The position numbers and the translations under genes were made by a program. Under the pieces are notes generated by a model. It was given only the letters and a program-made list of their open reading frames with translations. It was not told where the DNA came from and made no database searches. A stretch of DNA of 64,000 nt from Sacculina carcini (Eukaryota > Arthropoda > Thecostraca > Sacculinidae), in contig OU696585.1 in the NCBI GenBank assembly GCA_916048095.2, positions 5,739,460-5,803,459 of the forward strand, written 5' to 3'. Positions 3,632 to 50,596 of the stretch are shown here, one piece after another (within the stretch, counting starts at the first letter, position 1; every line of letters starts with the position of its first letter).

Positions 3632-4478
3632 TGTATTTTAATGTAAGCACGAAAAATATAAGAACAATAAAGCACAATTCCACACGATCACACCGCAACA
3701 CAATGCACTAAATACTACTCTCTCCACCGAACAACACTCTAAACCAGTGGTCCCCAGCCCCCGGGCCGAGGACCGGTACCGGTCCGTGGGTCGTTTGGTG
3801 CCGGGCCGCACAGAAATAATAAATGACTTACATTGCTTCCGTTTAAATTGATTTCGGAATCTGAACGATGTTTTATTTTGAAAAATTACACGATTCTCAG
3901 TAACATCCGTCTATGTCACTTTTGACGCAGGTCAAGGCGCTCTTCTCGGTCACGTGAAACCCAGGAGCCAGCAAATTGAGTAAAAAACAAACGTCTTTGG
4001 AAAGTTTCTTTGCGAAGGGGAAAAGGCCCAGCCATGAGACAGAAGAGGAGCCTACGACTTCCAAGAAAAAGAAAGCTACATTTAATAGACAATATCAGGA
4101 GTCCTACTTAAAATACGGATTTATCCCAACAGGCCGACACCTCGAAGGCCGGTCCCTGAAAATATTGTCTGACATTAAACCGGTCCGTGGCGCAAAAAAG
4201 GTTGGGGACCGCTGCTCTAAACCACTGCACAAACACCACACTCTCACTTCACCAGTAACGCACCGCCCAACATGCACGAGCGACCGTTGACTCCGGGCGG
4301 ATACCACCCGCGCATGCACTCACTCACAGCTCGCGCTTATGCAACGCAGCTACCTCCGCGCGCGCATACAACAATGCAGACAAGATCACACTCTCCCGCA
4401 CACACAAATACATACGCACGCACGCACAATTATATATTATACAAACGCACCAATACAATTGATAATAAACACAATACA
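3632..4478 (-). repeat. 3' LTR of element A, interrupted by a hAT element
   Basis: Apart from the hAT insertion at 3745-4214 and its duplicated 8 bp, this LTR aligns nearly base for base with 7092-7459. It starts TGTATTTTAATG and ends ACACAATACA. On the element strand the purine tract preceding it reads ATCAGGGGGATA (4479-4490), a good polypurine tract for plus-strand priming. Confidence 0.92.
3745..4214 (+). mobile_element. Internally deleted hAT transposon (470 bp)
   Basis: The termini are imperfect inverted repeats: CAGTGGTCCCCAGCC at the left, and the right end reads CAGCGGTCCCCAACC on the opposite strand. An 8-bp target duplication, CTCTAAAC, flanks it (3737-3744 and 4215-4222), the hallmark of hAT elements. 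From 3976 it encodes the start of a ZBED/hAT-type transposase (KKQTSLESFFAKGKR, then RQYQESYLKYGF), after which the frame jumps into the 3' end. It is therefore a deletion derivative. The insertion lies in one LTR of element A only, so it postdates that element. Confidence 0.93.
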
Positions 4479-4532
4479 TATCCCCCTGATTATAAGAATC
4501 ACTATGCCCGATTATAATTATACACAACATAA

Positions 4533-5061: not shown

Positions 5062-5257
5062 CTATTGATTGGGGAGTCACAAATCAGTTCGTCTCAGCTG
5101 TTTGTCGCTTCGGATGCAAGTCGCTTTATGTACGAAGCGGCAACTCGCAACCAGCCACCGACAGGATAATGCGACACCAAAGTACTACACAAAGAAAACA
5201 CGACTCGTCTCGTGAGCTGTTGCGGACACTCACCCACGGCATTGTCCCTGTTCCACA

Positions 5258-5809
5258 TCAGCTTGCCAGACTCTGATAAAAAACGTGTACGCCGAGCACA
5301 CGGGTTCCGTCAGAGAGCTTTTGAATTTCCTTCAATTCAAGACCGTACTTGGCAAAGTGCTCCTTCACTGCTTCGGGTGACACAATGTTTCCATCAATTA
5401 GGACATCGCCAACATATGTGTCACGTCTTACCTGGTAGTTTTGTGCCATCACCGAGTCGACCACCGTGTGCATGATCATGGGCGCCTCACTCAACCCGAA
5501 TCCAAGCCTGGTTAAGTAGTACAGCACACCATTGAACTTTACCGTCTGGAAAGGCCACAACAAACTGTCCACTGATATCTGCAGGTAGGCTTTCTTGAGG
5601 TCCATGATAAACACATTGTCTCCCTTCATCCGCCATTCCCTCAGCCTCTCATTGCATACATGAGCATCTGCAGAACGAGTGTCAATGTGTTTATTTAATT
5701 CTCGTAAATCGAGGACCGGTCTCACTTTGTTCTTGTTCTTCTGGGTCACTGCCATCAGAGGAATTAAACAGTGAGCAGGCCCATGTACACTCTCATCATA
5801 AGGAGTCAA
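5258..5809 (-). pseudogene. Element A reverse transcriptase with a mutated catalytic motif
   Basis: Motifs in order: VRPVLDLRELNKHI, FIMDLKKAYLQI (motif A Asp), LWPFQTVKFNGVLYYLTRLG, FGLSEAP (motif B), then DTYVGDVLID where YVDD is expected. The second motif C Asp position reads Gly-Asp, so one catalytic aspartate is lost. A single in-frame TAG (5810-5812) separates it from the protease segment. The lineage (LWPxQTV...LTRxGFGL) is the same as the RT piece at 47310-47598. Confidence 0.88.
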
Positions 5810-6400: not shown

Positions 6401-7069
6401 TCTCCTTCCTCGTTTCCCTGGCAGTCCTTCGCCATGTGACCCAATTTGGAACAATTAAAACATCGTATCCGATATTTCCTTTTTGGGGCACTCTCTACTC
6501 AAATGACCAGTCTGGTTGCAAATATAGCATTTTCGAGGTGAAAGCGACCCGGCATTGGCGGCTAGACAGTTTGGTGGATTTTTTGTCGTTTGTAACACCA
6601 TGCGAGTTCTGCTCGTAATATCACTCAACGACAGAGACTCTGACACTGTGCTGGCACGATTACTGGTCGCCACGTGCTCGGGTAGACCCTTTAAAAATGC
6701 ACATATCAGCAGATTATCGGATACGCCACCGAATGAAACTGCGAGTTTTTTCAATTCTGGCAAATATACGTCAGGCGACTCACCTTCTTGTAGACGACGA
6801 CTGGTGAAGAGGGCGCATGCACGGAATCTGTCCACTCCAAACGCCGAGAACAAAGCCCTGCGAGTCCCTTTCGCACAACGGCGAAGTTCATCAGGCAGTT
6901 GGGACCACAAAACAAACGCGCCTTTTGAGAGACGCAGTGGCACTACGCTCATCACATCGACGCCTTTGAGCTGACACATCATATCCGTGCGAGTCCACCA
7001 TTCCACAATGTCACTCTGACCATCAAATTCTGGCATCACGCGAGCGTCGAAACCACATGAAGACTCCAT
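6372..7069 (-). pseudogene. Element A gag with two zinc knuckles
   Basis: The start is the Met at 7069 (MESSCGFDARVMPEFDG), only 22 bp after the 5' LTR. The protein has a capsid-like helical part (PEFDGQSDIVEWW...), then zinc knuckle CYICNQTGHLSREC (CX2CX4HX4C). After a 1-bp shift inside a CCCCAAAAA run, a second knuckle CFNCSKLGHMAKDC follows at about 6470-6430, ending SSAPAPSPQ. Gag packages the element RNA. The shift between the two knuckles is most simply a one-base insertion. Confidence 0.85.
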
Positions 7070-7079
7070 TTTTCGGAAT

Positions 7080-7091
7080 GGCCGGTTAGCT
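7080..7091 (-). promoter_or_regulatory. Element A primer-binding site matching a tRNA 5' end
   Basis: The plus strand reads GGCCGGTTAGCT directly against the 5' LTR. This equals nucleotides 1-12 of metazoan tRNA-Ile as I know it, so the element RNA here is complementary to the tRNA 5' end. A usual site would begin TGG, complementary to the tRNA 3' CCA end; none is adjacent. Element B shows the same geometry with tRNA-Phe at 47587-47598. Confidence 0.6.
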
Positions 7092-7459
7092 TGTATTTGA
7101 ATGTAAGCACGAAAAATATAAGAACAAGAAAGCACAATTCCACACGATCACACCGCAACACAATGCACTAAATACTACTCTCTCCACCGAACAACACTCT
7201 GAACCACTGCACAAACACCACACTCTCACTTTACCAGTAACGCACCGCCCAACATGCACGAGCGACCGTTGACTCCGGGCGGATACCACCCGCGCATGCA
7301 CTCACTCACAGCTCGTGCTTATGCAACGCAGCTACCTCGCGCGCGCATACAACAATGCAGACAAGATCACACTCTCCCGCACACACAAATACATATGCAC
7401 GCGCGCACAATTATATATAATACAAACACACCAATACAATCGATAATAAACACAATACA
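7092..7459 (-). repeat. 5' LTR of element A
   Basis: 368 bp from TGTATTTGAATG to ACACAATACA, matching 3632-4478 without the hAT. It is followed by CATAC (7460-7464), the target duplication, and then by the rest of the interrupted R1 unit (ACACACAGATAATTTA). Confidence 0.92.
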
Positions 7460-8362
7460 CATACACACACAGATAATTTATTATAAATATATATAGATTT
7501 AAAGTCGTCCGTCGTGCGGAACAATTCATAAACTATATTCATATTCAATCCATAAAAGAAAATGAATACAAATTTAAAAGCAAACAAATTAACCTGTAAA
7601 TAGGTTAACTAAAAGCAAAGTCCAAATATGGATGTTTTTATTTTATTTTGACAAAAAATTATCCCTCAACCAGGCTTTGTATTGTGTTATGAAGCAACAC
7701 GGAAATTGCAATTTTCGAATATATATATTATTCAACAAAGGCTTACACCAATAACAATATTAGAACGCTCTCATCACACCAAAACACTCACAAGTACCAC
7801 ACTACTCAAAATCTCTTGTCACCTTGTCGCTAACGCGCAGCGTATGACGCCTCAATTATTATTTACAATTATGCCACCTCACACGCTTCATATTTAAACC
7901 TGCCCGTCGTGCGGAATAATTACAAATTCAGACACAGAACAATGAAATTTGTCCAAAAAAAATTATCGTAATGTTTCCAAAATGTATTTATAAATTAACA
8001 TCATCTAGCATTGAAACCCTCCCGCTTAGCGGAACAATTACAACAAAAATTAAAATATATATTGAATTCATTCAATTAAACTAATACAAATTACAAAATT
8101 AAAAAAGCAAACCCATAAAAAGTCTTAACCAATGGACAAGTCTAAATATGAATGTGTTTATGTTAGATGTGGCAAAATATTTTCCCTCGAACAGCCTCAT
8201 ATTTAAACCCGCCCGTCGTGCAGAACGATTAAAATAGTATAATGAATCAAATGTAACGGTGAAAATTATATTTTGTGATGTTGATTTTCGTCGTTCGGCT
8301 AATCGTGATGTATTGATAGTTCCTCTTGATGTTGTGGCCGCGATAACAAGTAATGATCACCC
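7460..8362 (+). repeat. R1 fragments
   Basis: Consecutive partial R1 units, each recognisable by GTCGTGCGGAA-type cores at about 7508, 7905, 8030 (variant CCCGCTTAGCGG) and 8212, with TTTGACAAAA...CCCTCAACC linkers. No coding sequence recognised. The stretch 8260-8460 is open on the plus strand but matches nothing I know. Confidence 0.75.
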
Positions 8363-10942: not shown

Positions 10943-11548
10943 TGTCGAAGTTGAATTGTATATTTTCAGCAATCAGTCAATCTACCTTGAAGCTATTCTT
11001 AAATCTAATGTATTAATTACGGCTTGCCTTAGTAAGTGGTGAGTCCTACCTCGCACGACGATAGTCCAACTAAGCCAAGCCAACTGACCCACCAACAAGC
11101 ACAGCCCAAGCACCGCCCAAGCACCACCAAACCATTCAACAAGCATTCTTATTCTTAGTAACCCTGGTTTATATACCCACGAACACATGTCGTTGGCATC
11201 ATATACCTCAAGCAATGACAGTTGGCCAAACAGCGCGAACTACACAACCGCTATTTCTACACACATTTCTACAGCTATTTCTAAACACGATCTGACTGTA
11301 CATACGCGTGTTACTACGATCTGCTCAGCCAAGTCAGACACACAAAAAAGATAATTAATCAACGGTCACACGTTGCCAAGCATATCAGGCGCAGTGTACT
11401 ACTGACGTCACCCTAACACATAAATTAGCCTAACGACAGCTGCACAAGCAGGCCGCGAAAGAACGCGAAAGTAAACTGAGAGAAAGAGAGAGAAAACCGA
11501 GTAAACTGATAGATAGAAAACTGGTCTGATAATAACTTTGTTATATCA
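10943..11548 (-). repeat. Element E right long direct repeat
   Basis: Counterpart of 8363-8968, same length. It is followed at 11549 by an R1-type variant (AAATTCTTGTTTTAATT...CCGTCCTTCGTGTG) also found at 48640-48740. Confidence 0.85.
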
Positions 11549-12046: not shown

Positions 12047-12119
12047 TACGGCTCACATTGTGTTCTACAAAACCACCACACTTCCGCTAAAGCAGCATAT
12101 GCATAAAGCTGGCATCACA
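11549..12119. other. R1 variant and CA-rich noncoding sequence
   Basis: The stretch begins with an R1 variant, continues as CA-rich sequence reminiscent of the CA-rich LTRs of this window, and includes a pure (CA)n tract at about 12010-12042. No gene seen. Confidence 0.6.
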
Positions 12120-13427
12120 TTGTATTGCAACTCATATGCTTATGCTACTTGAAATTACACCAATTAAATTACAGTTAAATGCAGTAGTTTACTTTGTTCC
12201 CAGTAGCATTTTACCCGCCCGTCGTGCGGAAGCATTCATGTATAAATATTGAGGACAATAATGCCTTTCTATTCAGTATAGTGTAGCCCTAGTTAGCCTG
12301 TACGCCAAAAAAACCATCAATGCTTGGAGTTAATACGATGCATTTTTAATTGTGATTGGGCTTCAGTGAAATTAAATCAGTGTATATTCATGTGTAATCG
12401 AAAGTGCGCATAATAGCTGTCAAATTGGCAATATGTCCTTTTGAACTTACACCGCCGTAACTTCCTTTAGGCACACTTTGGAAGATTAAAAAATATACCG
12501 TATTGTAGAAAACAAAATTTCTAGCACGATGGTATAATTTATTTTAATGTGTAACAAATAGTTACTGAGAAATAGTAGAAAATGAATTAATTTTAGTCGC
12601 CCGGTGTTCAAGTGTAATTTTGGATGTACTTACAACTTTTGCCAATTTTACACGTTTTTTGTCTCATTTGTGGGTATAAATTATAACTTATCTTGTAGAA
12701 GACAAAATTTTCTACACAATAGTATAATTTATATAGCTGTACCATAACTGGTTTATGAGGAATAGATAGCGGAATATTGACCAAAATATTCAGGATTTTT
12801 AGTGCTAATTTTGCCTTTTTGACTTTGTCATTTTGACTTCACACCGCCGTGACTTTTTCTTGATACACTGTGCAAAAGTAAAAATTATACCGTGTTGAAG
12901 GAAAACAATATTTCCAGAATGATGATATTATTTATTTAGATGTGTGATAATTAATTTTTGAGAAATAGAGAAAAAAGTATAGAAAATCGGACGCGTGGAG
13001 TTAAATAACATTTTGAATATAGATTGAAATTTTGTCATTTTAACATATTATATACTCACTTTTTGAATACAAAATTTAATTCAAATTGTAGAACAGCTGA
13101 TTTTCTACACAATGGTAAAATTTTTATAGCTGTACCATTGCTGGTTTATGAGGAGTAGATGGCGGAATTTTGACCAAAATTTTCGCATTTTTCAGGGTTC
13201 ATTTTGTCTTTTCATCGCTATAACTATTTTTGGTTTTGTGTTTTTAAAAATTAAAACTCAACTTATCGTGTAGACAAGTAAATTTCCAACGTGATGGTAT
13301 AAATTGTTAGCGGGTACACTAAGTGGTTACCGAGTAGCAGCTTGCAGAAAATGGACCAAGGAGAGTGGGACAGACAGACACACACACACACGGAGGTTCT
13401 CTTATATATATATACTAGCATTAAAAC
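12120..13427 (+). repeat. R2 repeat complex, copy 1 (one 340-bp module)
   Basis: A noncoding block shared with 16440-18440 and 48830-50540. It is marked by repeated words such as TTTACACCGCCGTAACTT, GGCAATATGTCCTTTTGA and TGTACCATTGCTGGTTTATG. It closes with GACAGACAGACACACAC...GAGGTTCTCTTATATATA, after which an R1 unit starts. This copy has a single version of the module beginning TGTGTAATCGAAAGTGCGC. Confidence 0.8.
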
Positions 13428-13925
13428 CCGCCCGTTGTGCGGAACAATTTATAAAAATATTGCAAATTAGAAAATAAATAAGGCAAACTCATAAAAACAT
13501 TAATCAATTGAAAAGTCTAAATTTCATTATTTTTAATTTTATTTTGACAAAATATTTTCACTCAGCCCGCCTCATATTTAAACCCGCCCGACGTGCGGAA
13601 TAATTCAGAACTCGAACACGATCCGTTCTGGATCTTGAAGTCAAATCCATTAGTTTTGTATATGAATTCATTCTACACGGTGAAATTGAACATTTTATTG
13701 TCTATAGTTGCTGCCCGCTGGACATTTTTATCTCATAAAAATGAAATCGCGGGTTCAATGGTATAAATCAAGGGCTTCAAACGCAAACGAAGCCATCGCT
13801 TCGTTTGCGTTTGAAGCCCCTGATCTATAACATTGAACCCGCGCAATTATGTCACCTCATATTCAAGCATGCATACACAGACAGACAGATAATTTCTTTT
13901 ATATATACATAAAAGAAATATATAT
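13428..13925 (+). repeat. R1 unit containing a hairpin
   Basis: A full R1 unit from CTAGCATTAAAACCCGCCCG to the CAGACAGACAGATAATTTC tail. It differs from its neighbours by an inverted duplication at 13748-13843. Confidence 0.88.
13748..13843. repeat. 96-bp near-perfect inverted repeat
   Basis: Two arms of about 45 bp around CCATCG: the left begins CGCGGGTTCAATGG and the right ends CATTGAACCCGCG; the inner parts read CTTCAAACGCAAACGAAG and its complement. In sister R1 units only the right arm is present, so the left arm is an inverted duplication that would form a long hairpin. Confidence 0.9.
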
Positions 13926-13930
13926 ATATA

Positions 13931-14379
13931 CTAGCATTAAAACCCGCCCGTTGTGCGGAAGAATTCATAAAAATATTGCAAATTAAAAATAAATAAGGCA
14001 AACTCATAAAAACCTTAATCAATTAAAAAGTCTAAATTTCATTATTTTTAATTTACATTTTGACAAAATATTTTCACTCAGCCCGCCTCATATTTAAACC
14101 CGGCCGACGTGCGGAATAATTCAGAACTCGAACACCATCCGTTCTGGTTCTTGAAGTCAAATCCATTAGTTTTGTATATGAATTCATTCTACACGGTGAA
14201 ATTGAACGTTTTATTGCTGCCCGCGGGACATTTTTATTTCATAAAAATGAGCCATCGCTTCGTTTGCGTTTGAAGCCCCTGATAATTGAACCAGCGAACC
14301 ATGAGCCAGCGCAATTATGTCACCTCATATTCAAGCATACATACACAGACAGACAGATAATTTCTTCTTTATGTATATA
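13931..14379 (+). repeat. R1 tandem unit, copy B
   Basis: A 449-bp unit essentially identical to the next one, including the shared variant CCCGGCCGACGTGCGG and the deletion around TTGCTGCCCGCGGG. This suggests a very recent tandem duplication. Confidence 0.92.
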
Positions 14380-14829
14380 CTAGCATTAAAACCCGCCCGT
14401 TGTGCGGAAGAATTCATAAAAATATTGCAAATTAAAAATAAATAAGGCAAACTCATAAAAACCTTAATCAATTAAAAAGTCTAAATTTCATTATTTTTAA
14501 TTTACATTTTGACAAAATATTTTCACTCAGCCCGCCTCATATTTAAACCCGGCCGACGTGCGGAATAATTCAGAACTCGAACACCATCCGTTCTGGTTCT
14601 TGAAGTCAAATCCATTAGTTTTGTATATGAATTCATTCTACACGGTGAAATTGAACGTTTTATTGCTGCCCGCGGGACATTTTTATTTCATAAAAATGAG
14701 CCATCGCTTCGTTTGCGTTTGAAGCCCCTGATAATTGAACCAGCGAACCATGAGCCAGCGCAATTATGTCACCTCATATTCAAGCATACATACACAGACA
14801 GACAGATCATTTCTTCTTTATGTATATAT
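14380..14829 (+). repeat. R1 tandem unit, copy C
   Basis: Direct tandem partner of 13931-14379, period about 449 bp, with almost no differences by eye. Confidence 0.92.
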
Positions 14830-15640
14830 ATAGCATTAAAACCCGCCAGTTGTGCGGAGCAATTCATAACATGAAATTCATATTCAATTCATAAAAAATA
14901 TGGAAAAATAAAAATGAAATAGGGTACACTCATAAAAATATTAATCAATTGAAAATTATAAGTTTAATTATTTTTATTTCGACACAATATTTCCCCTCAG
15001 TCCGCCTGAGTCATTTTTAAACCCGCCCGTCGTGCTGAATAATTCAGAACTCGAACACGATCCGTTCTGCATCTTGAAGTCAAATCCATTAATTTTGTGT
15101 ATAGATTAATTCTACAGGGTAAATTGAACGTTCTATTGTCTATAGTTGCTGCCCGCGGAACATTTTTATTTTAAAAAAAAAAACCTTTTTTTAAATGAAC
15201 CATTTGAAAAAATGATCTAAAAACACTTTTTTAAACCCACCCGTCGTGCGGAACAATTCATACAATAAAATTCATATCAAATCCATAAAATATAATGAAT
15301 ACAAATTGAAAAGCAAAAAATGTAACCTATAAATATCTTAACCAATAGAAAAGTCTAAATGTGAATATTTTTGTTCTTATTTTGACAAATATTATCCCTC
15401 AACCCGCCTGATATATAAATCTGCCCGTCGTGTGGTATAATTCAGAACACAAACACGAAACAAACAATGAAAGATGATGAAATCTTTTCATCAGACTGTT
15501 TCCAAACTATATTTATTACTTAACATCATTCCCCAATATCATTTGCTTAAGTACTATTTCACTTTTACCGCTATAATATTTATTGTTAAAATATATATAT
15601 TTTCCGCTATCATTAAAACCCAATATAACCTGAGTCAAAC
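14830..15640 (+). repeat. Diverged R1 units
   Basis: Starts TAGCATTAAAACCCGCCAG and has further GTCGTGCGG-type cores at about 15025, 15242 and 15427. It contains an A-rich stretch near 15172-15190. No coding sequence. Confidence 0.8.
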
Positions 15641-16560
15641 CTACCCAACCCAACCCAACCATTCAATCTTGACCGCTCTCAGCCTAGTCTGAGGTGATTT
15701 AACTTATTAGTTTGTGATCACAAAATATACTGATGCGATCATAATTTGTAATCAGAAGACTGAGATTATCTACCCCAGGGGTCCCAAACACGCGGCCCAC
15801 CAATACTTTTCTCTCAACCCGCCAATATAGTATCGGGACCAAACTGTAAGGTAGCTAAATTCACATTTGTTGCATAATGCGATATAATTTTACACCATTA
15901 TCATATTATCTCATAATTCCCGGTTAATGCTTCCACTAATGCATCATATTCATACAGTTGTTATTTTTTGGATTACATCGATAATGCAGCCCTTGATATT
16001 ACAGCCGATATTATATTATGCAATCTATATTCTGCTACGTATTATTCCTAATACATATATCATCAGATCGCAAAATATATTTAAAGGTTCACATCATTCT
16101 CCAAAATCATTTGCTTAAGAGCTATTCTACTTTTATCGCTAGAATATTTACTGCTAGCAAAATATCATATACCTCGCTATCATTTAAACCCACTCTTTAT
16201 AGATACATTTAATTCGCCCGTCGTGCGGAACAGTTCATAAAATATAATTAATATTCAATTCATAAAAAAATTAGTGCAAATTGAAAAATAAAAACGAACC
16301 CACAGGAAAGTTATAGCTAATCTAAAAGTCTAAATGTGAAATTTATGTTTCAATTTAGAAAACATGTTTTTCCACAACACTATCAAAACAATGCAACTTT
16401 CTGTCATCTCTATAATTCCAGGTTAATGCTTCCGCTAAAACAGCATAAGTTGGCATTACATGATATTGCAACCCATATCCTTATGCAACTTATGCTTATG
16501 CAACTTGAAATTAAACCAATTAAATTACACAGTTAAATTCAGTAGTTTACTTTGTTCCCA
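15641..16560. other. AT-rich noncoding sequence with R1 fragments
   Basis: It shares words with 3100-3200 (AACACGCGGCC, CCCGCCAATATA) and carries one R1 core at about 16215 (CGCCCGTCGTGCGGAACAG). No gene seen. Confidence 0.6.
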
Positions 16561-18412
16561 ATAGCATTTTACCCGCCCGTCGTGCGGAACGTTATTGAGG
16601 ACAATAAAGCCTTTATATTCAGTAGAGTGTAGCATTAATTAAACTGTACGCAATAAAACCACACCATCCATGCTTGGAGATAATATGATGCATTCTTAAT
16701 TGTGATTGGGCTTCAGTGAAATTTAATCGGTGTATATTCCTGTGTAATCGCAAGTGCGCATAATAGCTGTCAAATTGGCAATATGTCCTTTTGACTTTAC
16801 ACCGCCGTAACTTCCTTCAGATACCCTTTGGAAAATTACAAATTATACCGTATTGTAGAAGAAAAGGTTTCTAGAACGATGGTATGATTTATTTTTATGT
16901 GTAACAAATAGTTACTGAGAAATAGTAGAAAAATGAATTAATTTTAGTCGCCCGGTGTTCAAGTGTAATTTTGGATGTATTTGAGAATTTTGCCAATTTT
17001 ACACGTTTTTTGTATCATTTGTGGGTATAAATTATAGCTTTTCTTGTAGAACACAAAATTCTCTACACAGTAATATATTCCTGTGTAATCGCAAGTGCGC
17101 ATAATAGCTGTCAAATTGGCAATATGTCCTTTTGACTTTACACCGACGTAACTTCCTTCAGATACACTTTGGAAAATTAATAATTATACCGTACTGTAGG
17201 AAACAAAATTTCTAGCACGATGGTATAATTACTTTTAATGTATGACAAATAGTTCCTGAGAAATGGGTATAAAAATGAATAAATTGTAGTCACCCGGTGT
17301 TCAAGTGTAATTTTTGATGTATTTGAGAATTTTGCCAATTTTACACGTTTTTTGTATCATTTGTGGGTATAAATTACACCTTTTCTTGTAGAACACAAAA
17401 TTCTCTACCCAGTAGTATATTCCTTTGTAATCGCAAGTGCGCATAATAGCTGTCAAATTGGCAATATGTCCTTTTGACTTTACACCGCCGTCACTTCCTT
17501 CAGATACACTTTGGAAAATTAAGAATTATACCGCATTTAAAAAAATACAATTTCCAGCACGATGATATAATTTATTTTAATGTGTGACAAATAGTTCCTG
17601 AGAAATAGGTAGAAAAATGAATTAATTTAGGCGCCCGGTGATCAAGTGTAATTTTGGATGTATTTGACAATTTTGCCAATTTTACACATTTTTTGTATCA
17701 TTTGTGGGTATAAATTATAACATTTCTTGTAGAACACAAAATTATCTACACAATAGTATAATTTTTATAGCTGTACCATTGCTGGTTTATGAGGAATAGA
17801 TAGGGGAATATTTACCAAAACATTCACGGTTTCCAGTGCTAATTTTGCATTTTTGACTTTGTCATTTTGACTTCACACCGCCGTAACTTTTTTTAATACA
17901 CTTTGGAAAATTAAACATTATACCGTGTTGTAGCAAACACAATTCCCAGCATGATGGTATTATTTATTTAGTTGTGTGATAATTAGTTTTTGATACATAG
18001 AGAAAAAAGTATAGAAAATCGGACGCGTGGAGTATAAATATAATTTTGAATATAGATTGAAATTTTGTCATGTTTACATCTTTTATGTTCTATTTTTGGA
18101 TATGAATTATAACCTATCTTGTAGAACAGAAAATTCTCTACACAGTGGTATAATTTGTTTGGCTGTACCATTTCTGGTTTATGAGGAGTAGATGGCAGAG
18201 CATTGACCACAATTTTCGCATTTTTCAGGGTTCATTTTGTCTTTTCACCGCTTTAACTTTTTTTGATTTCATTTTTGAAATTTAAAATTTAATCTAACGT
18301 GTAGACAAGAAAATTTCCAACGTGTTGGTATAAATTGTTAGCGGGTAGGCTGAGTGGTGGCCGAATAATGGCTGATAGAAAATGGACCAAGGAGGGTCGA
18401 ACACACACACAG

Positions 18413-18440
<28 letters not shown>
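16561..18440 (+). repeat. R2 repeat complex, copy 2 (three 340-bp modules)
   Basis: Same family as 12120-13427, but the module beginning TGTGTAATCGCAAGTGCGC occurs three times in tandem, at about 16738, 17078 and 17417 (period about 340 bp). It then continues into the shared 3' part and ends with an (AC)n tract and AGAGGATCTC. Confidence 0.88.
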
Positions 18441-18444
<4 letters not shown>

Positions 18445-18468
18445 ACAGAGGATCTCTTTTATATATAT

Positions 18469-18521
<53 letters not shown>
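18404..18521. repeat. (CA)n then (TA)n microsatellites
   Basis: (AC)n at about 18404-18447, with a few interruptions, then (TA)n at about 18460-18519. Overlapping ORFs of Thr-His or Tyr-Ile repeats are artefacts. Confidence 0.95.
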
Positions 18522-25039: not shown

Positions 25040-26873
25040 GAATAAATAACCTATATCAGCGATCTGGAGAGGGATCAGAGCACTCAATGGCAGCTGGACG
25101 CCAGTAGCTATGCCAATCCTGAATATAGAGGGCAGCCGTATCAGCGAGCCAAAAGTTGTCGCCAACAAAATAGCAGAACATATGGCTAGAACAAGTTGTA
25201 TTCAGGCATATCACGGCATTGAACCATCGGCAATGCTAGAGATTGAATTGCCAGACAAACGCTTCCGATCACCCCACCATGTACGAATATAATCTCGATT
25301 TTACAGCTCTGGAATTAAAAAGAGCGATCAACCGATCAGGCCATACGGCGGTTGGACCAGACAACATACATTACGATTTTTTAAGACATGTATCATCTGA
25401 ATCCTTTTATCACGTCTTAGCATTTTTTAATTCCTTGTGGAGAACACATTCTTATCCTGCATCATGGAAACACTCAACAATTGTACCACTTCTGAAGAAG
25501 GGAAAACCCCGCGATTCTCCCAAGTCCTACCGACCAATATCCTTGACCAGTTGTATGGGAAAACTTCTTGAGAGGATGGTGACAGCCAGAGTTTCTTACA
25601 TTCTTGAGACAAACAATGTGCTCGATCACTATCAGAGTGGATTTCGTCCCAGTCGATCGGCAGTAGACTCGGTAGTCAGGCTGGAAAATATAATAAGAAC
25701 GGGTTTAGTCAACAAGCAGTGCACACTGATCGTATATCTAGATCTGACCAACGCTTATGATAGTTATACCGGGAATATTGTTGCGAAAAATACACGACAT
25801 GGGCTTGAGGGGTAATATGGCGGAATATATAAAAAACTTTCTGTCAGGTAGGAGATTTTTTAGAACGCGACTCGCAGGCATATATTCGGACCAGTATAGC
25901 ATGGATACCACAAGGAGGTTGTCTGTCGCCAATCCTATTCAACTTGATGGTGAATGATATGTTCAGCGATATGCCAGCAAATATCCAATATGCGATTTAC
26001 GCCGATGACAGCGCCATTTGGATTCAATTTGAAAACGTGGCTATCATGAGCGCTCAACTTCAAGAAGCTCTAGATGTTTTAGCACTATGGGCCAAAGCAA
26101 ACCACATGAAGTTTTCTGGTCTGAAGTCGACGGCCGTGCTATACTCAATAGACAGCTATAAAATTCAGAAAACATTGAGGTTGGGTGACGAAATCATTCC
26201 GTACCGACAATCACAAAAGTTTCTAGGTATCGTGCTGGATAAAAGACTCACCATGCGGGAACATATAATAGACTTGAAGGCGCGCTGTCAGAAGCGATTA
26301 AACATATTACGTATTATAGCTGGAAATAAACACGCCGGTGCGAGTGTTTCCGTTCTCCATAAGGTTTTTAAAACATTGATTTTATCAATTTTAGACTATG
26401 GACTACAGTCATACTCATCGGCGAGCCCTTCCATTCTTAGTCTTTTAGAACCAATCCAAAACGAGGCTCTTCGGCTGATAACAGGTGCGTACAGAACGAC
26501 ACCAGTCGAGGCCCTGCGAGCGTATACCGGCTTTCCAGAACTGAGCACACGACGCAAGAATATCGTGCTACGTTACACGTTGAAAGTACACACCAGCTAT
26601 AACCACATCGCTCATCCTTATACAAATATCGTAGATAACATGCCCAATTTTTCCTCCAGAAAGCAGTTATCCAAACGGATGCTTAATAGACGAGCGAGGG
26701 AGTATATTCAGGAGCTCAATGTGGCAGTACCTCACCGAAATGGCCTAGTCTACGACATACCGCCCTGGTACAAGACAGCTCCAAAAATCCATTTCCTACT
26801 GGATGCGACCAAAGCGCAGGTATCAGATACTGAGGTCTCAAAGTGTGTTTGCGGAGTACATTTCGCATTATAG
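25040..26873 (+). pseudogene. ORF2 reverse transcriptase of the I-type element
   Basis: The linker part reads SAIWRGIRAL. RT motifs are GPDNIHYDFLRH, SYRPISLTSCMGKLLERM, SGFRPSRSAVDSV, VYLDLTNAYDS (motif A) and, after frameshifts near 25770 and 25935, YAIYADDSAIW (motif C) and KFLGIVLDKRLT. The motif B region around 25920 is garbled. The thumb reads NEALRLITGAYRTTPVEALR, typical of this group. The enzyme copies element RNA at a nicked genomic target. At least three frame disruptions. Confidence 0.88.
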
Positions 26874-27723
26874 CGACTATGCCCAAATATATACGGATGG
26901 ATCAAAGTGCAAAGGAAAGTCAGGATGCGCAATATACACCAAACAGCTGGGTAGTGCGTGCATATCAAGGTTCCGTCTGTCTTCATATGTCACGGTTTTC
27001 AATACTGAGCTGTTCGCAATATACAGAGCTTTGAGATACGTGGAAGAGCATCGGGTACAAAAAGCTTTAATTCTGAGTGATTCGAGATCTGCACTAGTCT
27101 ACATTTCCAATAGTCTTTCATCGGATTTTATACTTTTATCAATTTTAAATATTTTACATCGTATAACATCGAAATACGACTGTATACTGGTGTGGATACC
27201 AGGGCATTGTGGCGTGAAGGGCAATGAGAGGGCAGATGCGGAAGCAAAAGCTGCGTTGGAATCGAGCGACATTCACCAGTATCCAGTGTGTAAGCAGACA
27301 ATAAGACAGATTGTGAATACGGCTACATGCGAGTCTTTCCAACAAAAGTGGACCAGTCACAGACATAATTATGCACTTGGGGCCATAGAGCAATCGGTAA
27401 CTCCATGGCTGGATGACAATTTACCAAGGAAAGCGCAGCGAGTAATCGCGAGACTAAGACTGGGATGCACTAGGATAACACACAATAACTTATTGGAGAA
27501 GACATCGCCACCTATATGCTCACACTGTCGAACTCCTCTCACGTATAGTCATATAATCACGGAATGCGAGTTGTATGAGGTCTCGCGGCAACCCTTACGT
27601 TCCTACTGCCACTCCACAAACATCCATTTTAATCTCATCAATATCTTACATCCTGACCACCCGAACGCGATTCGACTACTACTCAAGTACCCTTATGATA
27701 TAGATTTGTTAGCAAAGCTTTAA
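26816..27723 (+). pseudogene. ORF2 RNase H and C-terminal zinc motif
   Basis: QIYTDGSKCKGKSGCAIY (Asp), FNTELFAIYRAL (Glu), ILSDSRSALVYI (Asp) and WIPGHCGVKGNERAD (Asp) give a complete RNase H active site in an uninterrupted frame. Later CSHCRTPLTYSHIITEC provides the CX2C...H...C motif found at the C-terminus of many non-LTR ORF2 proteins. It is offset from the RT frame, so a shift lies near 26830. Confidence 0.9.
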
Positions 27724-33387: not shown

Positions 33388-33407
33388 GGATCCTGTCGGC
33401 TGCGCCA
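33388..33407 (-). promoter_or_regulatory. Gypsy primer-binding site, tRNA-Ser type
   Basis: Directly after the 5' LTR the element strand reads TGGCGCAGCCGACAGGATCC. This is complementary to a CCA-ending tRNA 3' end of the tRNA-Ser kind (…GGCTGCGCCA), as used by Drosophila 17.6/297-type elements. Confidence 0.7.
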
Positions 33408-41093: not shown

Positions 41094-42835
41094 TCAGACC
41101 TTGTAATCACTACTAACATACGTAATATTATTAAGACAGTAAAAAGACTTAATTGGGAAAAAAATTTTAGTGTGTTTTTTGAAAAGAGAAAGAGATTTGA
41201 TTGAGCGTATTGAGGGAGATAGCCTATTGTAGATGCGAGGTCCCAAGATAGAGAAACAGCGATTGTAGTGAGAATGCCTAGAAGGAAAGGGAGGTTCAAC
41301 TAGTAGAAAATGATCCTTAGAAGACCTAAGAGAAAGAGATGAGGTTTTATAAGACAGAAGGTCAAACAGATACGTAGGCTTACGAAGATGAAGAGCTGAA
41401 TGAATAATGAAACAAATACGATACTCAATAAGAGCCTTGATTGGAAGTAACTTAACTTTGTGTAGAGAAGAAGAAACATGAGAACCCGAAGGAAGATTAA
41501 ATATCATACGACAAGCTTTATTAATAATAGATTGAAGTTTCCTAAGCTGGCGGTGGTTGAGTGATAGAAGAGAACAGCAATACTGAACTTTGCTAAAGAT
41601 GAATGAGTTAGCTAAATTGAAAGCAGCAGAAATAGTTATATATCTACGAATGGAATAGATACGCCTGAGCTGGAAGTTACAGCACCTAATAATGTCAGAG
41701 ATATGTCGATCAAAAGAAAGAGAGCTATCAAAAATGATACCAAGACTACGTACAGAGCAGGATAGAGGTATACTAAGAGAAGTAGTACTATTAGAAGATG
41801 GAAAGAGAATATACTTAATCTTATCAGGATTAAGTTTGAGATGACGAGTGAACGCCCAACTTTCATTATCAGATAGAATAGAACTGACTGAAGAGCGAGA
41901 AATAGACACGGACGAGAGAAGGATTTGAATGTCATCAGCGAATATTTGAAATGACACATCGTGATGTCGAAGTACTTTCCCTACAGAGGTTAGATAGATA
42001 TTGAAGAGGAGAGGGCCTAAGACAGAGCCCTGAGGGACACGGCAAGTTAATGGGCAAGCCTCACTACAAGAATCAGCAGAGGTAGATACGTATTGAGATC
42101 TATCAGAAAGATAAGAGCGAAAGAAAGAAAGAGCTGTGTCGCTAATGCCTAAGTCTAACAGAGTATCAATAAGAAGCAGATGATTAACAGTGTCAAAAGC
42201 AGCCGAAAAGTCTAGTTGTATAAGTAGAACATCCTTGCCAGAGAGAGTAGATTTGAGAATAGAATCATAGATATATATTAGAGAAGTTTCTGTAGAGTGA
42301 TAGTGACGGAAGCCAGACTGCTCAGGAAGAAACAAATTGTCAGACTCAAGGTAGTCAGATAGCTGTATATAGGCAGCCATTTCAAGAACTTTGGACAGCC
42401 AAGGAATTCTAGAGATAGGTTTATAGTTAGAAAGCGTGTTAGCTTCCAGATCAGATTTCTTAAGTATAGGGAGAATACTGGCAGTTTTACATGCCAGAAA
42501 TTGCCCATGAGTGAAAGAAGCATTGATGAAGTTAGATAAGAAAGGAAGAAGTAGCTCAATAGAGTGAGGAATCCTGGAAAGATCAATGGGGTCTAGAGAT
42601 GAAGAATGAATTTTAACATGCAAAATAGCTCTACAGTCAGAGATGGTTACTAAAACAAAAGAGTGAAAAACAGATGAGGCTGAGCACGGAGAGGACAATG
42701 TCAGAACAGAAGGGAACAAGCAACGAATCTTATAGATTTTGGACTGAAAAAAATTCATGAATAAAGAAGGTAATTGGTTAGATGCCAAATCAGGAAGGAT
42801 GAGACTACGGGAATTACCTAAAAGTAAGATCTTTA
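41094..42835 (-). CDS. CR1/L2-type reverse transcriptase
   Basis: About 580 codons uninterrupted. Motifs: PILKKSDLEANTLSNYKPIS, EQSGFRHYHSTETSL, LIQLDFSAAFDTVNH (motif A), VPQGSVLGPLLFNIYL (motif B), FQIFADDIQILLS (motif C, FADD), and SLGIIFDSSLSFDRHI. The C-terminal block FSILGPRIYNRLSPSI is characteristic of the CR1/L2/Rex-type group; there is no RNase H. All catalytic residues appear present. The frame is offset by one base from the endonuclease ORF at 42814-42835, so the two enzymes are no longer in one protein. Confidence 0.93.
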
Positions 42836-43575
42836 ATTAGAACAGAAGAATCAGAAAAGGAAAGGAGAAGATCAAGTGTGTGGCCGTGAACATGAGTAGG
42901 GCAGCAGATATGATTAAAAAGACCAAATGAGTCAATTAATTGTAAAAATGTAGAAGAACAAGACTTGAGATGAGGCGCATCAACCCAAATGTTGAAGTGA
43001 CCGCAAAATATTATTCTAGAAGAAAAAATTGGAAGAAGTGCGTCAACAAGCGAAGAAAACTCATCAAGAAAGATCGAGGAGGAAAATGAATTAAGACGAT
43101 AAATGATGACAATACATACAGGAAGAGTAGTTTTACCTATAACCTTACAACATAAATGTTCAAATGAATTAAAATTTATATCTACACTACATAGATAGGC
43201 ATTAATTATGTTCGAATTGAATACAAAAGAAACACCACCACCAGAGCATTTAGTAGAATTAGAGACGTTCAAAGGGCGACAATAATGAAAAGCTGAGTAG
43301 CCAGAAGGAAGCGAGTTGTCAAAAGAGGAAGTCTCTGCAACAGATAGCCATGACTCAAAAACCAGGAATATATCATAATTATGAAGAATGGACGGAAAAC
43401 GTGAAATTTTAGACCTAATAGACCTAAAATTCAAGAAAGCACATTTCAATAGACCAAGTTCATTATCAGACTTAGAACAAGAGATAATAGGAAACGAATC
43501 AGAGATAGAAGAAAGACACTTATCAGCGGATGATGAGCTGGTTGGAGGAAGCAGTACTGAAGAATCAGCGTCCAA
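42814..43575 (-). pseudogene. CR1/L2-type APE endonuclease with altered catalytic block
   Basis: Blocks in order: LLKCAFLNFRSIRSKISRF, IFLVFESWLS (E), SGGGVSFVFNS, IVIIYRLNSFSS, IFCGHFNIWVDAP where G-D-F-N is expected (Asp to His), and HGHTLDLLLSFS. Such a His substitution should abolish target nicking. The frame ends KDLTFR, where a 1-bp shift leads into the RT. Confidence 0.88.
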
Positions 43576-43622
43576 TTCAGAGTTAGATTGCTGTACACAA
43601 TCAGTCAGGCTGGTGGTCCCAT

Positions 43623-43945
43623 CTAGTTTCCCGAATTGAGATCCTCGACGGTCTGAGTCCGGTTGATCACATGGGTCCTCGATGTCCAGAAGCAGGGGCA
43701 GGCAGAGTCAAACGCTGCATGGTAGACGTTGTCACGACCCGCACGAACACAGTTGATGCACTTGCGGGCATTCTTCCTCGAGCACGACTTGGTGGTGTGT
43801 TTTCCAGCACACCACCCACAAGTGGCCTCCTGGGATCGACATTTGTCAGCCGTGTGACCATGACGTTGGCATTTGACACACCGAGTAACCCAAAAGCGGT
43901 CATACACCAGGCACCTTTGGTCACCCAAATAGACAAATCCGGACT
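43623..43945 (-). pseudogene. ORF1 zinc-knuckle region of the CR1/L2-type element
   Basis: CVKCQRHGHTADKC, CGWCAGKHTTKSC, and CINCVRAGRDNVYHAAF…C form three successive knuckles as in ORF1 of CR1/Jockey-like elements. A related piece lies on the plus strand at 59136-59504. The upstream part is replaced by (CA)n at 43950. Confidence 0.85.
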
Positions 43946-45926: not shown

Positions 45927-46398
45927 TGTAGTGGAAATAGAGATGTATTCAATGAAGATGAGCACGACGATGAAATGATAGCACTGAAATGCACTCTTGA
46001 AAACAAAACTTATAATAAACAATAAACACTTTGTGGCCTCGCACCAATCACAATTACAAATACACTACCAACACACGAACACCACCAACACTCACAACGC
46101 TCAAGACCAGACTCATTGTAGCTCGCTTCAGCCACACGCACAGGCGTCACACGTCACAATGTCAAAGTACACCGACCAATCAGCACCCAGTACTCGAGTC
46201 ACTTGACAAGTCAAGTCACATGAACCACTCACACACGCAGACATATACACGCAGATACACGGTAACTCGCATTCATGGAAAAGAGCAGGCACACCATTAG
46301 AGCACTTGGACATACACATACATACAGACATACAAACACACCTACGCGGGTACACGATTTCATCACACTGTACATACACAATATGAATACCTATTACA
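45927..46398 (-). repeat. 3' LTR of element B
   Basis: 472 bp, same length as 47599-48070 with scattered substitutions. Polypurine-type GGGGCA lies at 46399-46404 on the element strand. Confidence 0.93.
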
Positions 46399-46497: not shown

Positions 46498-47310
46498 CTA
46501 GTGCATAACATAGTCACGGTGCCAGACAGGAGCTCTTCTCTGTCGTATAGGGCGGCTGTGACTCACCGATTCACTGGCTTCTGCAGACACATCATCACCG
46601 TCGTCGCCGCTACGAGGTCTGAGGTCGCGCACGTGACGCAACATGCCGTCCACCTCGACCACCTGGTCAGACGCCAACGCCGTAACACGACCCTCGACAG
46701 TCGGCTGAGTTCACCTCGTACCACTGTTGCGCACCCACCCTGGATCATCGGTGTCCAATGCATCAATTGTCTGACGCGGCGTCATACACGCTCCCTGTTC
46801 GCCCACAATATCACGCCATTGATAGTTGTACAGTACCTGTGCAGGCGTTCCCTTGCGGTCACTGAAAGGACTCGTATAAATTACAGATGTACAGCTTCAC
46901 CGATGGAACAATTCTTGCGAGCAGCAATCACCTTCACAGTGCGGTGATTCCTTTCTATAATACCATTGCCACTGGGTCTGCACGCCGCTCGAAATTGCAC
47001 CTCAATACTCCACTTTGCTGCAAATGCTAGAAACTGCTGACTTCTGAATATAGTAGCATTGTCACACAATAGCTGAGTGGGGAAACCTGGCTCAAGGAAC
47101 ATCTCTTCAAGGTGTCTCGTGATATTATCAGCGTCGGATCGCCTCAGCAATCGCCACAAAGAAAATCTTGATGGTCCACAGTCAATCACGGACAGATATT
47201 CTTGGCCTTGAAAGTGTGTGACGTCTATAGTGAGTCTGTGCCATATCTCTCCAACTGATAATTCACCTCTTGGCCATTTTCGCGGGGCAGTAATGCAGCA
47301 GTGCTGGACT
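46498..47310 (-). pseudogene. Element B integrase
   Basis: KWPRGELSVGEIWHRLTIDV followed by VIDCGPSRFSLWRLL (first Asp), TQLLCDNATIFRSQQFL (second Asp) and GNGIIERNHRTVKV (Glu) give the D,D,35E core. The frame then shifts: the remaining part reads FSDRKGTPAQVLYNYQWRDI and, after another shift, VEVDGMLRHVRDLRP and RRAPVWHRDYVMH to the stop at 46498. Two frameshifts. The N-terminal zinc domain is cut at about 47300 by the inverted RT piece. Confidence 0.88.
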
Positions 47311-47598
47311 TGGAAAAACATGTCTGCAAATTCACGTCGAAAAGGAGTTGTGGCCATATCAGACAGTGATATTTGACGGCAAGCGATACTGCTTAACGAG
47401 GATGGGTTTCGGTCTGAGTGTGGCACCCGCCGTTCTGCAGACAATACTGGATTATGTGTTGAAGCAAGCTAAGTGTGTGAGCGCAGGGACTTCCGCATAT
47501 CTGGATGATATTTTTGTTGACCTCAATGTAGTCAGCGCGGAATAGGTTCGTGGTCATCTTGGAAAATGTGGTTTGGTGAGCAAGAAGCCGAAATAGCT
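47300..47598 (+). pseudogene. Element B RT fragment, inverted relative to the integrase
   Basis: The plus strand reads VLDLEKTCLQIHV, LWPYQTVIFDGKRYCLTRMG, FGLSVAP, and SAYLDDIFVDLNVVSAE (catalytic YLDD intact), then VRGHLGKCGLVSKKP up to the LTR edge. It is the same lineage as element A's RT (LWPFQTV…). Opposite orientation to the LTR-defined strand and to the integrase means an internal inversion or template switch. Confidence 0.87.
47587..47598 (-). promoter_or_regulatory. Element B primer-binding site matching the tRNA-Phe 5' end
   Basis: The plus strand reads GCCGAAATAGCT directly before the 5' LTR (TGTAGTGG). This equals nucleotides 1-12 of eukaryotic tRNA-Phe. As in element A, the matching segment ends at tRNA position 12 and abuts the LTR. 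The inverted RT fragment joins this site through a shared GCCG. Confidence 0.65.
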
Positions 47599-48070
47599 TG
47601 TAGTGGAAATAGAGATGTATTCAATGAAGATGAGGACGACGATGAAATGATAACACTGAAATGCACTCTTGAAAACAAAACTTATAATAAACAATAAACA
47701 CTTTGTGGCCTCACATCAATCACAATTACAAATACACTACCAACAATTGAACACCACCAACACTCACAACGCTCAAAACCAGACTGCTTGTTTTTCGCTT
47801 CAGCCACACGCACAGGCGTCACACGTCACCATGTCAAAGTACACCGACCAATCAGCACCCAGTACTCGAGTCACGTGACAAGCCAAGTCACATGAACCAC
47901 TCACACACGTAGACATACACACGCACATACACGGTTACTCACATTCATGGAAAAGAGTAGGCACACCATTAGCACACTTGGACATACACATACATACAGA
48001 CATACAAACACACCTACGCGGTTACACGATTTCATCACACTGTACATACACAATACGAATACCTATTACA
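47599..48070 (-). repeat. 5' LTR of element B
   Basis: 472 bp, counterpart of 45927-46398. It is followed by R1 sequence AGTTGACAAAATATTATCCC, the continuation of the unit broken at 45926. Confidence 0.93.
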
Positions 48071-48830
48071 AGTTGACAAAATATTATCCCTCAATTCGCC
48101 TCATATTTGAACCTGCCCGTCGTGCGGAACAATTCATACTATTAAATTTGTATTCAAATCATAAATGAAAAGAAATATGAATTAAAAAAGAAAAGAGTGA
48201 ACCCATACAACATCAAAATTTATATATTTTTATATTATTTTGACAAAATAGTTCGCCTAAACCGCCTCATATTTAAACCTGCCCGTCGTGCTGAATAATT
48301 CAGAACTCAGACACAAAACTATGAAAAATGACTAAGCTTTTTTATCATAATGTTTTCAAAATATATTTATAACTTAACATCACCATCTAGCATTAAAACC
48401 CGCCCGTTGTGCAGAACAATTAATAAAGTAAAATGAATATTGAATTAATAAAAAGCGATTAGAAATTTAAAAAGAAGAAGTAAACCCATGAAAAGTCTTA
48501 ACAAATAGAAAAGTATAAATATGAATGTTTTCATTTTAGATGTGACAAAATGTTTTCCCTCGAACAGCCTCGTATTTATACCCGCCCGTCGTGCGGAACT
48601 ATTAATAAATATAATTAATCAAAAAGCAAAAAGCTTATCCAATAGAAAAATATAAATTTGTAAATTCTTGTTTTAATTATTGACGGAGTTTTTTCCCTCA
48701 ACACTGCTCAAATTCACACCCGTCCTTCGTGTGTAGTAATTCAGAATTGTAACTCTGAAAACGATGAAACTTTCTGTCATCTCTATAATTCCAGATTAAT
48801 GCTTCTGCTAAAACAGCATATGCATATAGT
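48071..48830 (+). repeat. R1 units
   Basis: GTGCGG-type cores at about 48115, 48285 (variant CGTGCTGAA), 48405 and 48590, with AT-rich linkers, then the CCCGTCCTTCGTGTG variant at 48718. No coding sequence. Confidence 0.8.
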
Positions 48831-50540
48831 TGGCACTGCATGATATTACAACCCATATCCTTATGCAACTTAAGCGTATGCAACTTGAAATTAAACCAAT
48901 TAAATTACACATTAAAATTCAGTAGTTAACTTTGTTCCCAGTAGCATATTACCCGGTCGTCATGCGGAACAATTCATGTGTAAATATTGAGGACAATAAA
49001 GCCTTTCTATTCAGTATAGTGTATCATTAATTAAACTGTACCCAATAAAAGTACACTATCCATGCTTGGAGCTAATATGATGCATTCTTAATTGTGATTG
49101 GGCTTCAGTGAAATTTAATCAGTGTATATTCCTGTGTAATCGCAAGTGCGCTTAATAGCTGTCAAATTGGCAACATGTCATTTTGACTTTACACCGCCGA
49201 AACTTTCTTTAGGTACACTTTGGAAAATTAAAAATTATACCGTATTGTATAAACTAAAATTTCTAGCACGATGGTATAATTTATTTTTATGTATAACAAA
49301 TAGTTACTGAGAAATATTAGAAAAATGAATTAATTTTAGTCGCCCGATGTTCAAGTGTAATTTTGGATGTATTTGAGAATGTTGCCAATTTTACACGTTT
49401 TTTGTATCATTTGTGGGTATTAATTATAGCTTATATTGTAGAACTCAAAATTCTCTACACTGTAGTGTATTCCTGTGTATTCGTAAGTGCGTAAATTGTG
49501 ATTGGACTTCAGTGAAATTAAAACAGTGTATATTCATGTGTAATCGCAAGTGCGCATAATAGCTGTCAAATTGGCAATATGTCCTTTTGAATTTACACCG
49601 CCGTAACTTCCTTTAGATACACTTTGGAAAATTACAAATGATACCGTATTGTAGAAACTAAAATTTCTAGCACGCTGGTATAATTCATTTTAATGTGTGA
49701 CAAATAGTTTTTGAGAAATAGGTAGAAAAATGAATTAATTTTAGTCACCCGGCATTCAAGTGTAATTTTGGATGTATTTGAGAATTTTGCCAATTTTACA
49801 CGTTTTTTGTATCATTTGTGGGCATAAAGTATAACTTTTCTTGTAGAACACAAAATTATTTACACAATAGTATAATTTTTATAGCTGTACCATTGCTGGT
49901 TTATGAGGAATAGATAGCGGAATATTGACCAAAATATTCACGTTTTTTGTGCTAATTTTGCCTTTTTGACTTTGTCATTTACACTTCACACCGCCGTAAC
50001 TTTTTTTAATACACTTTGGAAAATTAAAAATTATACCGTGTTGTAGATAACACAATTCCCAGCATGATGGTATTATCTATTTAGATGTGTGATAATTAGT
50101 TTTTGAGAAATAGATAAAAAATATAGAAAATCGGACGCGTGGAGTATAAATATAATTTTGAATGTAGATTGAATTTTTTTTATTTTACATGTTTTTTATT
50201 TAATTTTTGAGTATGAATTACAATTTGTTGAGCAGAACAGAAAATTTTCTACACAGTCGTATAATTTTTATAGTTGTACCATTGCTGGTTTAGGAGGAGT
50301 AGTCTTCAGAAAATTGACCAAAATTTTCACATTTTTCAGGGTTCATTTTGTCTTTTCACCCCTATAACTTTTTTTGGTTTCATTTTGGAATTTAAAATGT
50401 AATCTAAAGTGTAGACAAGAAAATTTCCAACGTGATGGTATATATTGTTAGCGGGTGCGCCAAGTGGTGGCCGAGTATTAGCTGATAGAAAATGAACAAA
50501 GGATGGTGGAACACACAGACACACACACACAGACACACAG
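48831..50540 (+). repeat. R2 repeat complex, copy 3 (two modules)
   Basis: Same order of words as 12120-13427 and 16561-18440; the TGTGTAATCGCAAGTGCGC module occurs twice (about 49133 and 49535). It ends with ACACACAGACACACAGAGGATCTC as in copy 2. Confidence 0.88.
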
Positions 50541-50551
50541 AGGATCTCTTT

Positions 50552-50554
<3 letters not shown>

Positions 50555-50596
<42 letters not shown>
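50555..50596. repeat. (TA)n microsatellite flanked by an inverted repeat
   Basis: TA tract followed by TATACTGCCTGG and its complement CCAGGCAGTATA (50592-50623), a 12-bp perfect inverted pair around TGTAG. Confidence 0.92.

What the first reader, a model, noticed from the sequence alone, without database searches (positions are those of the whole stretch)
47587..47598. Element B independently shows the same geometry with tRNA-Phe nucleotides 1-12
Next to the 5' LTR of element B the plus strand reads GCCGAAATAGCT, exactly the first 12 nt of eukaryotic tRNA-Phe. In both A and B the match ends at tRNA position 12 (…TAGCT) and abuts the LTR TG. Two unrelated 12-mers both ending at the same tRNA nucleotide are very unlikely by chance. 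This points to a lineage-wide mechanism in which the tRNA identity can switch while the cut position stays fixed. Elements with ordinary TGG sites in the same window (19358, 33388, 62225) are an internal control.
Basis: partly seen in the sequence, partly recalled or inferred. Interest (0 to 1): 0.88.

Follow-up and report, generated by a model that had tools for sequence, protein, structure and literature searches.

The report
Retrotransposons primed by tRNA 5' ends
A large group of virus-like jumping genes in this animal genome appears to start copying itself from the first 12 letters of a transfer RNA, which differs from the primer types described in the papers read here.

Summary
The + strand reads GCCGAAATAGCT at 47587-47598 against the LTR of element B, and GGCCGGTTAGCT at 7080-7091 against the LTR of element A. 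In the elements' own (minus) sense these are primer-binding sites (PBS) directly after the 5' LTR, complementary to nt 1-12 of tRNA-Phe and tRNA-Ile. The window's B copy is rearranged, but separate genomic B copies keep the site. Genome-wide, ACA+PBS has 2,256 matches against 9 for the reversed control. Of 20 loci picked by RT similarity, 14 carry the exact Phe site, 4 have 1-2 mismatches, one has 3 and one lacks a 5' end. About 21 LTR-end groups share the site. The base just past position 12 is unusually variable in both families, as expected at a primer end. The elements' own LTRs lack the primer sequence, against Tf1-like self-priming. Best reading: minus-strand DNA starts from a tRNA 5' fragment ending at nt 12. 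The primer RNA was not observed, and no intact tRNA-Phe gene was found in the assembly; tRNA-Ile genes were.

The parts
47587..47598 (-). PBS of element B: element sense AGCTATTTCGGC, complementary to tRNA-Phe nt 1-12; abuts the 5' LTR
   Evidence: conserved in separate copies
47599..48070 (-). 5' LTR of element B (472 bp, TG..CA)
45927..46398 (-). 3' LTR of element B, 94.5% identical to the 5' LTR
47283..47590 (+). Inverted RT fragment inside B, joined to the PBS at GCCG (47587-47590)
46725..47290 (-). Integrase remains of element B, about 96% identical to other B copies
7080..7091 (-). PBS of element A: element sense AGCTAACCGGCC, complementary to tRNA-Ile(AAT) nt 1-12
   Evidence: tRNA genes
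7092..7462 (-). 5' LTR of element A
4215..4481 (-). Partial 3' LTR of element A (96% identical over 267 bp)
6455..7073 (-). Gag frame of element A with zinc knuckle; its ATG is about 7 bp from the PBS
5258..5809 (-). RT of element A, 55% identical to the relative P0019
4533..5093 (-). RNase H-like frame of element A
33388..33407 (-). Control: TGG-type site of an unrelated Ty3-like element, against its LTR at 33408

Best explanation
A and B belong to one lineage of LTR retrotransposons whose PBS is complementary to the first 12 nucleotides of a host tRNA (Phe in most sites, Ile(AAT) in some) and abuts the CA end of the 5' LTR. Shown: position, sequence, recurrence across the genome, two tRNA identities with one fixed end point, and extra variation just past position 12. 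Inferred: the tRNA 5' end pairs with the PBS and its strand is cut between nt 12 and 13, in the D-stem; the new 3'-OH primes minus-strand DNA into U5. Plus-strand copying of the primer would stop at tRNA nt 1, so an untemplated or mismatched base at strand transfer would explain the variable next base. Which nuclease cuts is unknown; the element's own RNase H is my first candidate, by analogy with Tf1.
For: Exact 12-mers at the LTR edge in A and B. 2,256 genome matches against 9. RT-selected loci: 14 of 20 exact, 2 with 1 mismatch, 2 with 2, 1 with 3. About 21 LTR-end groups among 56 sites, most of which had been chosen by the site. In the fetched DNA and window the Phe 12-mer is preceded by ACA in 46 of 47 cases, the Ile 12-mer in 31 of 36; the other 5 read CTG (those 5 were not identified). 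tRNA-Ile(AAT) genes begin GGCCGGTTAGCTCAG in 5 of 5 fetched. Position 13: three states in 9 B copies while none of 670 other columns has three; highest entropy of 352 columns in 29 B copies; one of 4 three-state columns of 617 in A. LTRs are TG..CA with 5-bp target duplications in 3 independent B insertions.
Against: No primer RNA was seen. No tRNA-Phe gene was found: 0 exact 15-mers, 0 25-mers within 3 mismatches, only two 3' pieces by BLAST; the Phe identity rests on a recalled sequence, helped by a 3' piece ending TTTCGGC. Position 13 is not unique: B column -9 is close in entropy, column -58 needs more changes (5 against 4) and two columns tie. One family matches only nt 3-12 (L114, L116, L125), so the site is not always renewed to nt 1. 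12 base pairs is short for a primer.
Confidence: 0.78

Rival explanations
1. Self-priming as in Tf1: the 5' end of the element's own transcript pairs with the PBS and is cut to a short primer.
For: The length (12 nt) is close to the Tf1 self-primer (11 nt, recalled). Self-primed elements also have the PBS right after CA (passages of PMC10085805).
Against: The primer sequence is absent from the LTRs: best match 4 mismatches in A and 5 in B, no better than shuffles. One 12-mer on many unrelated LTR ends is not expected. Full LTRs of the other groups were not read.
Confidence: 0.04
2. The primer is a separate small RNA with a tRNA-like 5' end (for example from tRNA-derived repeats or a dedicated gene), not a cut product of mature tRNA.
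For: No tRNA-Phe gene was found in the assembly while over a thousand Phe-type sites are implied.
Against: Ile sites match 5 of 5 fetched tRNA-Ile genes exactly. Phe and Ile sites end at the same tRNA nucleotide, which a common tRNA-cutting step explains more simply.
Confidence: 0.1
3. The 12-mers are regulatory or incidental (box-A-like sequence, target of tRNA fragments, signal next to the gag AUG), not primer sites.
For: TAGCT begins the tRNA box A (recalled); in several families the gag ATG follows within a few bases.
Against: The match includes the acceptor-stem bases of two tRNAs, starts at nt 1, and fills the slot where TGG-type sites sit in other elements of the same window.
Confidence: 0.05
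4. The 12-mer in the window is only a coincidence of the inverted RT piece and filler at a rearrangement.
For: GCCG is RT coding sequence and the RT piece ends there.
Against: RT homology stops at 47590 and separate B copies without that piece have the same site.
Confidence: 0.01

Closest known systems
Half-tRNA priming (Drosophila copia; plant Osser, Bryco, Bianca)
   Same: A 5' part of a tRNA with a new internal 3' end would prime (half-tRNA use: passages of PMC5371799, and PMC6317226).
   Different: In copia the pairing is near the anticodon of initiator tRNA-Met and the fragment is about 39 nt (recalled). Here nt 1-12 of tRNA-Phe or tRNA-Ile pair and the end lies in the D-stem.
Tf1/sushi self-priming (Tf1, Tj1)
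   Same: A short primer taken from the 5' end of an RNA, PBS directly after the LTR CA (passages of PMC4600332, and PMC10085805). The title of Levin 1996, seen in a reference list, gives RNase H cutting of an RNA duplex.
   Different: The RNA would be a host tRNA, not the element's transcript; the LTRs of A and B lack the sequence.
Conventional tRNA 3'-end priming (retroviruses, most Ty3 and Ty1 elements)
   Same: A host tRNA is the source of the primer.
   Different: Opposite end of the tRNA; no TGG; 12 nt rather than about 18 (the 18 is recalled).
LTR elements with PF23088 (DUF7047) in Trichuris, crabs and barnacles
   Same: RT region 52-64% identical in the 120 listed of 419 hits; same domain set.
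   Different: Their PBS could not be read here.

Membership tests
LTR retrotransposon | Paired LTRs TG..CA and target-site duplication | tested here: met
   LTR pairs of B and A; 5-bp duplications in 3 independent B insertions (a fourth pair repeats one of them), window B has 4 of 5 matching bases
LTR retrotransposon, Ty3-like gene order | Gag zinc knuckle, protease, RT, RNase H, integrase in that order | tested here: met
   L002 frames; the protease match is below its curated cut-off
Conventional tRNA 3'-end PBS | TGG-type site after the 5' LTR | tested here: not met
   A and B; 19 of 20 RT-selected loci have the 12-mer or a worn form in that slot, one has no 5' end
Half-tRNA (copia-type) priming | Primer is a 5' tRNA fragment with an internal 3' end | not testable with these tools
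   Inferred from the PBS only; no RNA data
Half-tRNA (copia-type) priming | PBS pairs with the anticodon-arm region | tested here: not met
   PBS pairs with nt 1-12
Tf1/sushi self-primed elements | PBS complementary to the 5' end of the element's transcript | tested here: not met
   Best LTR match 4-5 mismatches, as in shuffles
Tf1/sushi self-primed elements | Chromodomain in integrase; pretzel RNA structure | not tested
   None

The most novel reading that the evidence does not exclude
A further class of LTR-element priming: the elements anneal the 5' end of a host tRNA to the PBS and RT-RNase H makes a measured cut 12 nt from that end, a trans version of Tf1 self-priming. The tRNA can then change while the cut stays fixed, throughout a lineage that also occurs in nematodes and crustaceans.
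Probability: 0.4. Interest if true: 0.9.

Novelty: new variant of a known kind. Interest (0 to 1): 0.82.

Why it matters
A plant survey (passages of PMC6317226) says its elements use all three primer types described before: tRNA 3' end, half tRNA, self-primer. A 12-nt tRNA 5' end in the primer slot at over 2,000 sites of one genome would add a further type. It raises a concrete biochemical question (what cuts tRNA in the D-stem after nt 12) and gives a reason why PBS finders that look for tRNA 3' ends would miss such elements. The variable position 13 offers a sequence-only way to look for primer ends in other lineages.

Tried and rejected
The inverted RT piece first suggested that the 12-mer was only RT coding sequence; RT homology stops after GCCG and separate copies carry the site without it. 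Self-priming: rejected for A and B. My first guess that element A was the repeat at 8364-11548 was wrong; A is 4215-7462. Lys and Tyr 12-mers after CA: 0 in 128 loci plus the window; other tRNAs were not tried. Relatives in viral contigs and genome contigs: none confirmed. The first B pattern had one N too many and found 2 unrelated places. Two tRNA-Phe 3' pieces were searched for a 5' exon: none, but L088 proved to hold another element with the Phe site. An RT tree of 4 elements of this genome and 10 database proteins puts the two Ile users together (support 0.959) but is too small to count switches. Papers: ten searches were answered (two searches found no paper). In the titles and abstract starts they list I saw no tRNA 5'-end PBS. 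Passages only were read of PMC4600332, PMC7472051, PMC6934838, PMC7773854, PMC5371799, PMC10085805 and PMC6317226. Most subscription papers are not held, so absence from print is not established.

Full report
Check of the observation. The + strand reads GCCGAAATAGCT at 47587-47598 and the LTR copy begins TGTAGTGG at 47599. The two LTR copies are 45927-46398 and 47599-48070, 94.5% identical. Integrase remains on the minus strand make the right copy the 5' LTR, so in the element's own sense the sequence after the LTR end ACTACA is AGCTATTTCGGC. The companion in element A is GGCCGGTTAGCT at 7080-7091, in element sense AGCTAACCGGCC.

A complication in the window copy. The letters left of the 12-mer are an inverted RT fragment, 47283-47590, 97% identical to RT of other B copies, joined at GCCG (47587-47590), 4 nt shared with the PBS; the other junction overlaps integrase homology by 5-8 nt. 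This is what would be expected if plus-strand strong-stop DNA, ending at the copied primer end, mis-annealed to GCCG in the RT sense strand and copied it. It is one event, and other recombination could give it.

Separate copies. The window lies in an unnamed 264-Mb genome of 43 contigs. The B LTR query gave 40 scored matches and 30 loci; 9 besides the window copy show a 5' LTR with the site, 7 exact and 2 with ACCG at its start. A pattern with 11 PBS letters free gave 45 places, 39 exact; the next base, read on the tRNA-sense strand, is G 20, T 17, A 8. For A, 25 of 30 fetched loci show the exact site, and a pattern gave 41 places, 39 exact by my count.

Breadth. ACAAGCTAWYYSGSC gave 1,127 plus 1,129 matches against 2 plus 7 for the reversed pattern. 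The pattern admits 32 sequences; of the 100 places listed, by my count, 81 are exactly Phe, 15 exactly Ile and 4 variants. 29 regions of those places were fetched (read). Clustering 56 sites by the 67 bases before the final ACA gave 22 groups, one of them (L039:3113) a chance site outside an LTR edge, so about 21. In several the gag ATG follows within a few bases. Group 1 holds 8 Phe sites, 3 Ile sites and 2 variants; 2 of the 8 Phe sites are the second site of tandem pairs. Its Ile-type and Phe-type LTR ends are related: 3 of 4 Ile-type members score 19-27 against five Phe members where shuffles reach at most 16; the fourth, L089, scores 14-18. L107 and L108 carry an Ile-type and a Phe-type site 19 bp apart.

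RT-selected test. A 238-residue RT piece of a crab relative found 3,298 candidates, 150 scored. I picked 20 of the 150 by hand to cover different score classes and read 1,401 bp upstream of each. 14 carry the exact Phe site after CA, L111 and L117 have 1 mismatch, L114 and L125 have 2, L116 of the same family has 3, and L120 is preceded by another repeat and shows no 5' end. They form about 5 groups by LTR end. No Ile user was among them.

tRNA genes. tRNA-Ile(AAT) genes begin GGCCGGTTAGCTCAG in 5 of 5 fetched (L071, L076, L077, L081, L082). tRNA-Phe was not found: 0 exact 15-mers, 0 25-mers with up to 3 mismatches, and a 73-nt query gave only two pieces, both starting at nt 38; that DNA search skips very common words. 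That GCCGAAATAGCT is the animal tRNA-Phe 5' end is recalled; the 3' piece in L085 ends TTTCGGC, which pairs with GCCGAAA.

Primer end. In the 9 B copies with full LTRs, position 13 has three states while none of 670 other columns does. In 29 B copies it has the highest entropy of 352 columns, with column -9 close behind; there 31 columns have three and 4 have four states. On a quick tree it needs 4 changes (mean 0.75 of 287 columns), less than column -58 with 5 and equal to two others. Nearest neighbours share its letter 46% of the time, so it is partly inherited. The B set was selected by a fixed ATAATCATCGC after that base, which hides variation there. In A it is one of 4 three-state columns of 617, but 23 of 25 copies agree. 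In two RT-selected families it also differs between copies. In the family of L091 it is A in 9 of 9.

Rivals. Self-priming would need the primer sequence in the LTR; the best matches have 4 (A) and 5 (B) mismatches, equal to shuffles. Other elements of the window have TGG-type sites; the Ty3-like one at 33388-33407 directly abuts its LTR and its polyprotein is only distantly related to this lineage.

Lineage. L002 carries gag zinc knuckles, a protease match below its cut-off, RT, DUF7047, an RNase H-like domain and integrase. The RT region has 419 hits; the 120 listed are 52-64% identical, named sources being Trichuris, Petrolisthes, Amphibalanus and Chionoecetes. Viral contigs and genome contigs gave none.

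Place among known kinds. PMC6317226 (passages) names three primer types: tRNA 3' end, half-molecule tRNA (Met or Ile), self-primer. The present site is nearest to half-tRNA priming in implying a 5' fragment, and nearest to Tf1 in length and in using an RNA 5' end. I file it as a new variant of tRNA-fragment priming. The ten paper searches named in Tried and rejected did not list a report of it.

Noticed in passing
L114, L116, L125: A family whose site matches only tRNA-Phe nt 3-12 (AGCTATTTCGCA), the same in two copies and one base off in the third.
   Followed up: partly
L107 and L108, positions 161-194: Two sites in tandem: Ile-type, then 7 bases TGTAACA or TGTGACA, then Phe-type.
   Followed up: partly
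L085-L088 (G000 C19 near 4480881 and C12 near 8527627): Two tRNA-Phe 3' pieces, both starting at nt 38, the usual tRNA intron border; one lies upstream of an element with two Phe-type sites, the other between the arms of a large inverted repeat.
   Followed up: partly
whole genome G000: No tRNA-Phe gene could be found by pattern or DNA search, although tRNA-Ile, Lys and Tyr-like genes were.
   Followed up: partly
window 12081-18503 and 48752-50595: Long related repeat arrays with units near 340-400 bp at two places in the window.
   Followed up: no
window 8364-8968 and 10944-11548: A 90% identical 605-bp direct repeat 2 kb apart with no long reading frame between.
   Followed up: no
window 25240-27723 and 41094-43707: Long frames that look like non-LTR retrotransposon RT (judged by eye).
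   Followed up: no
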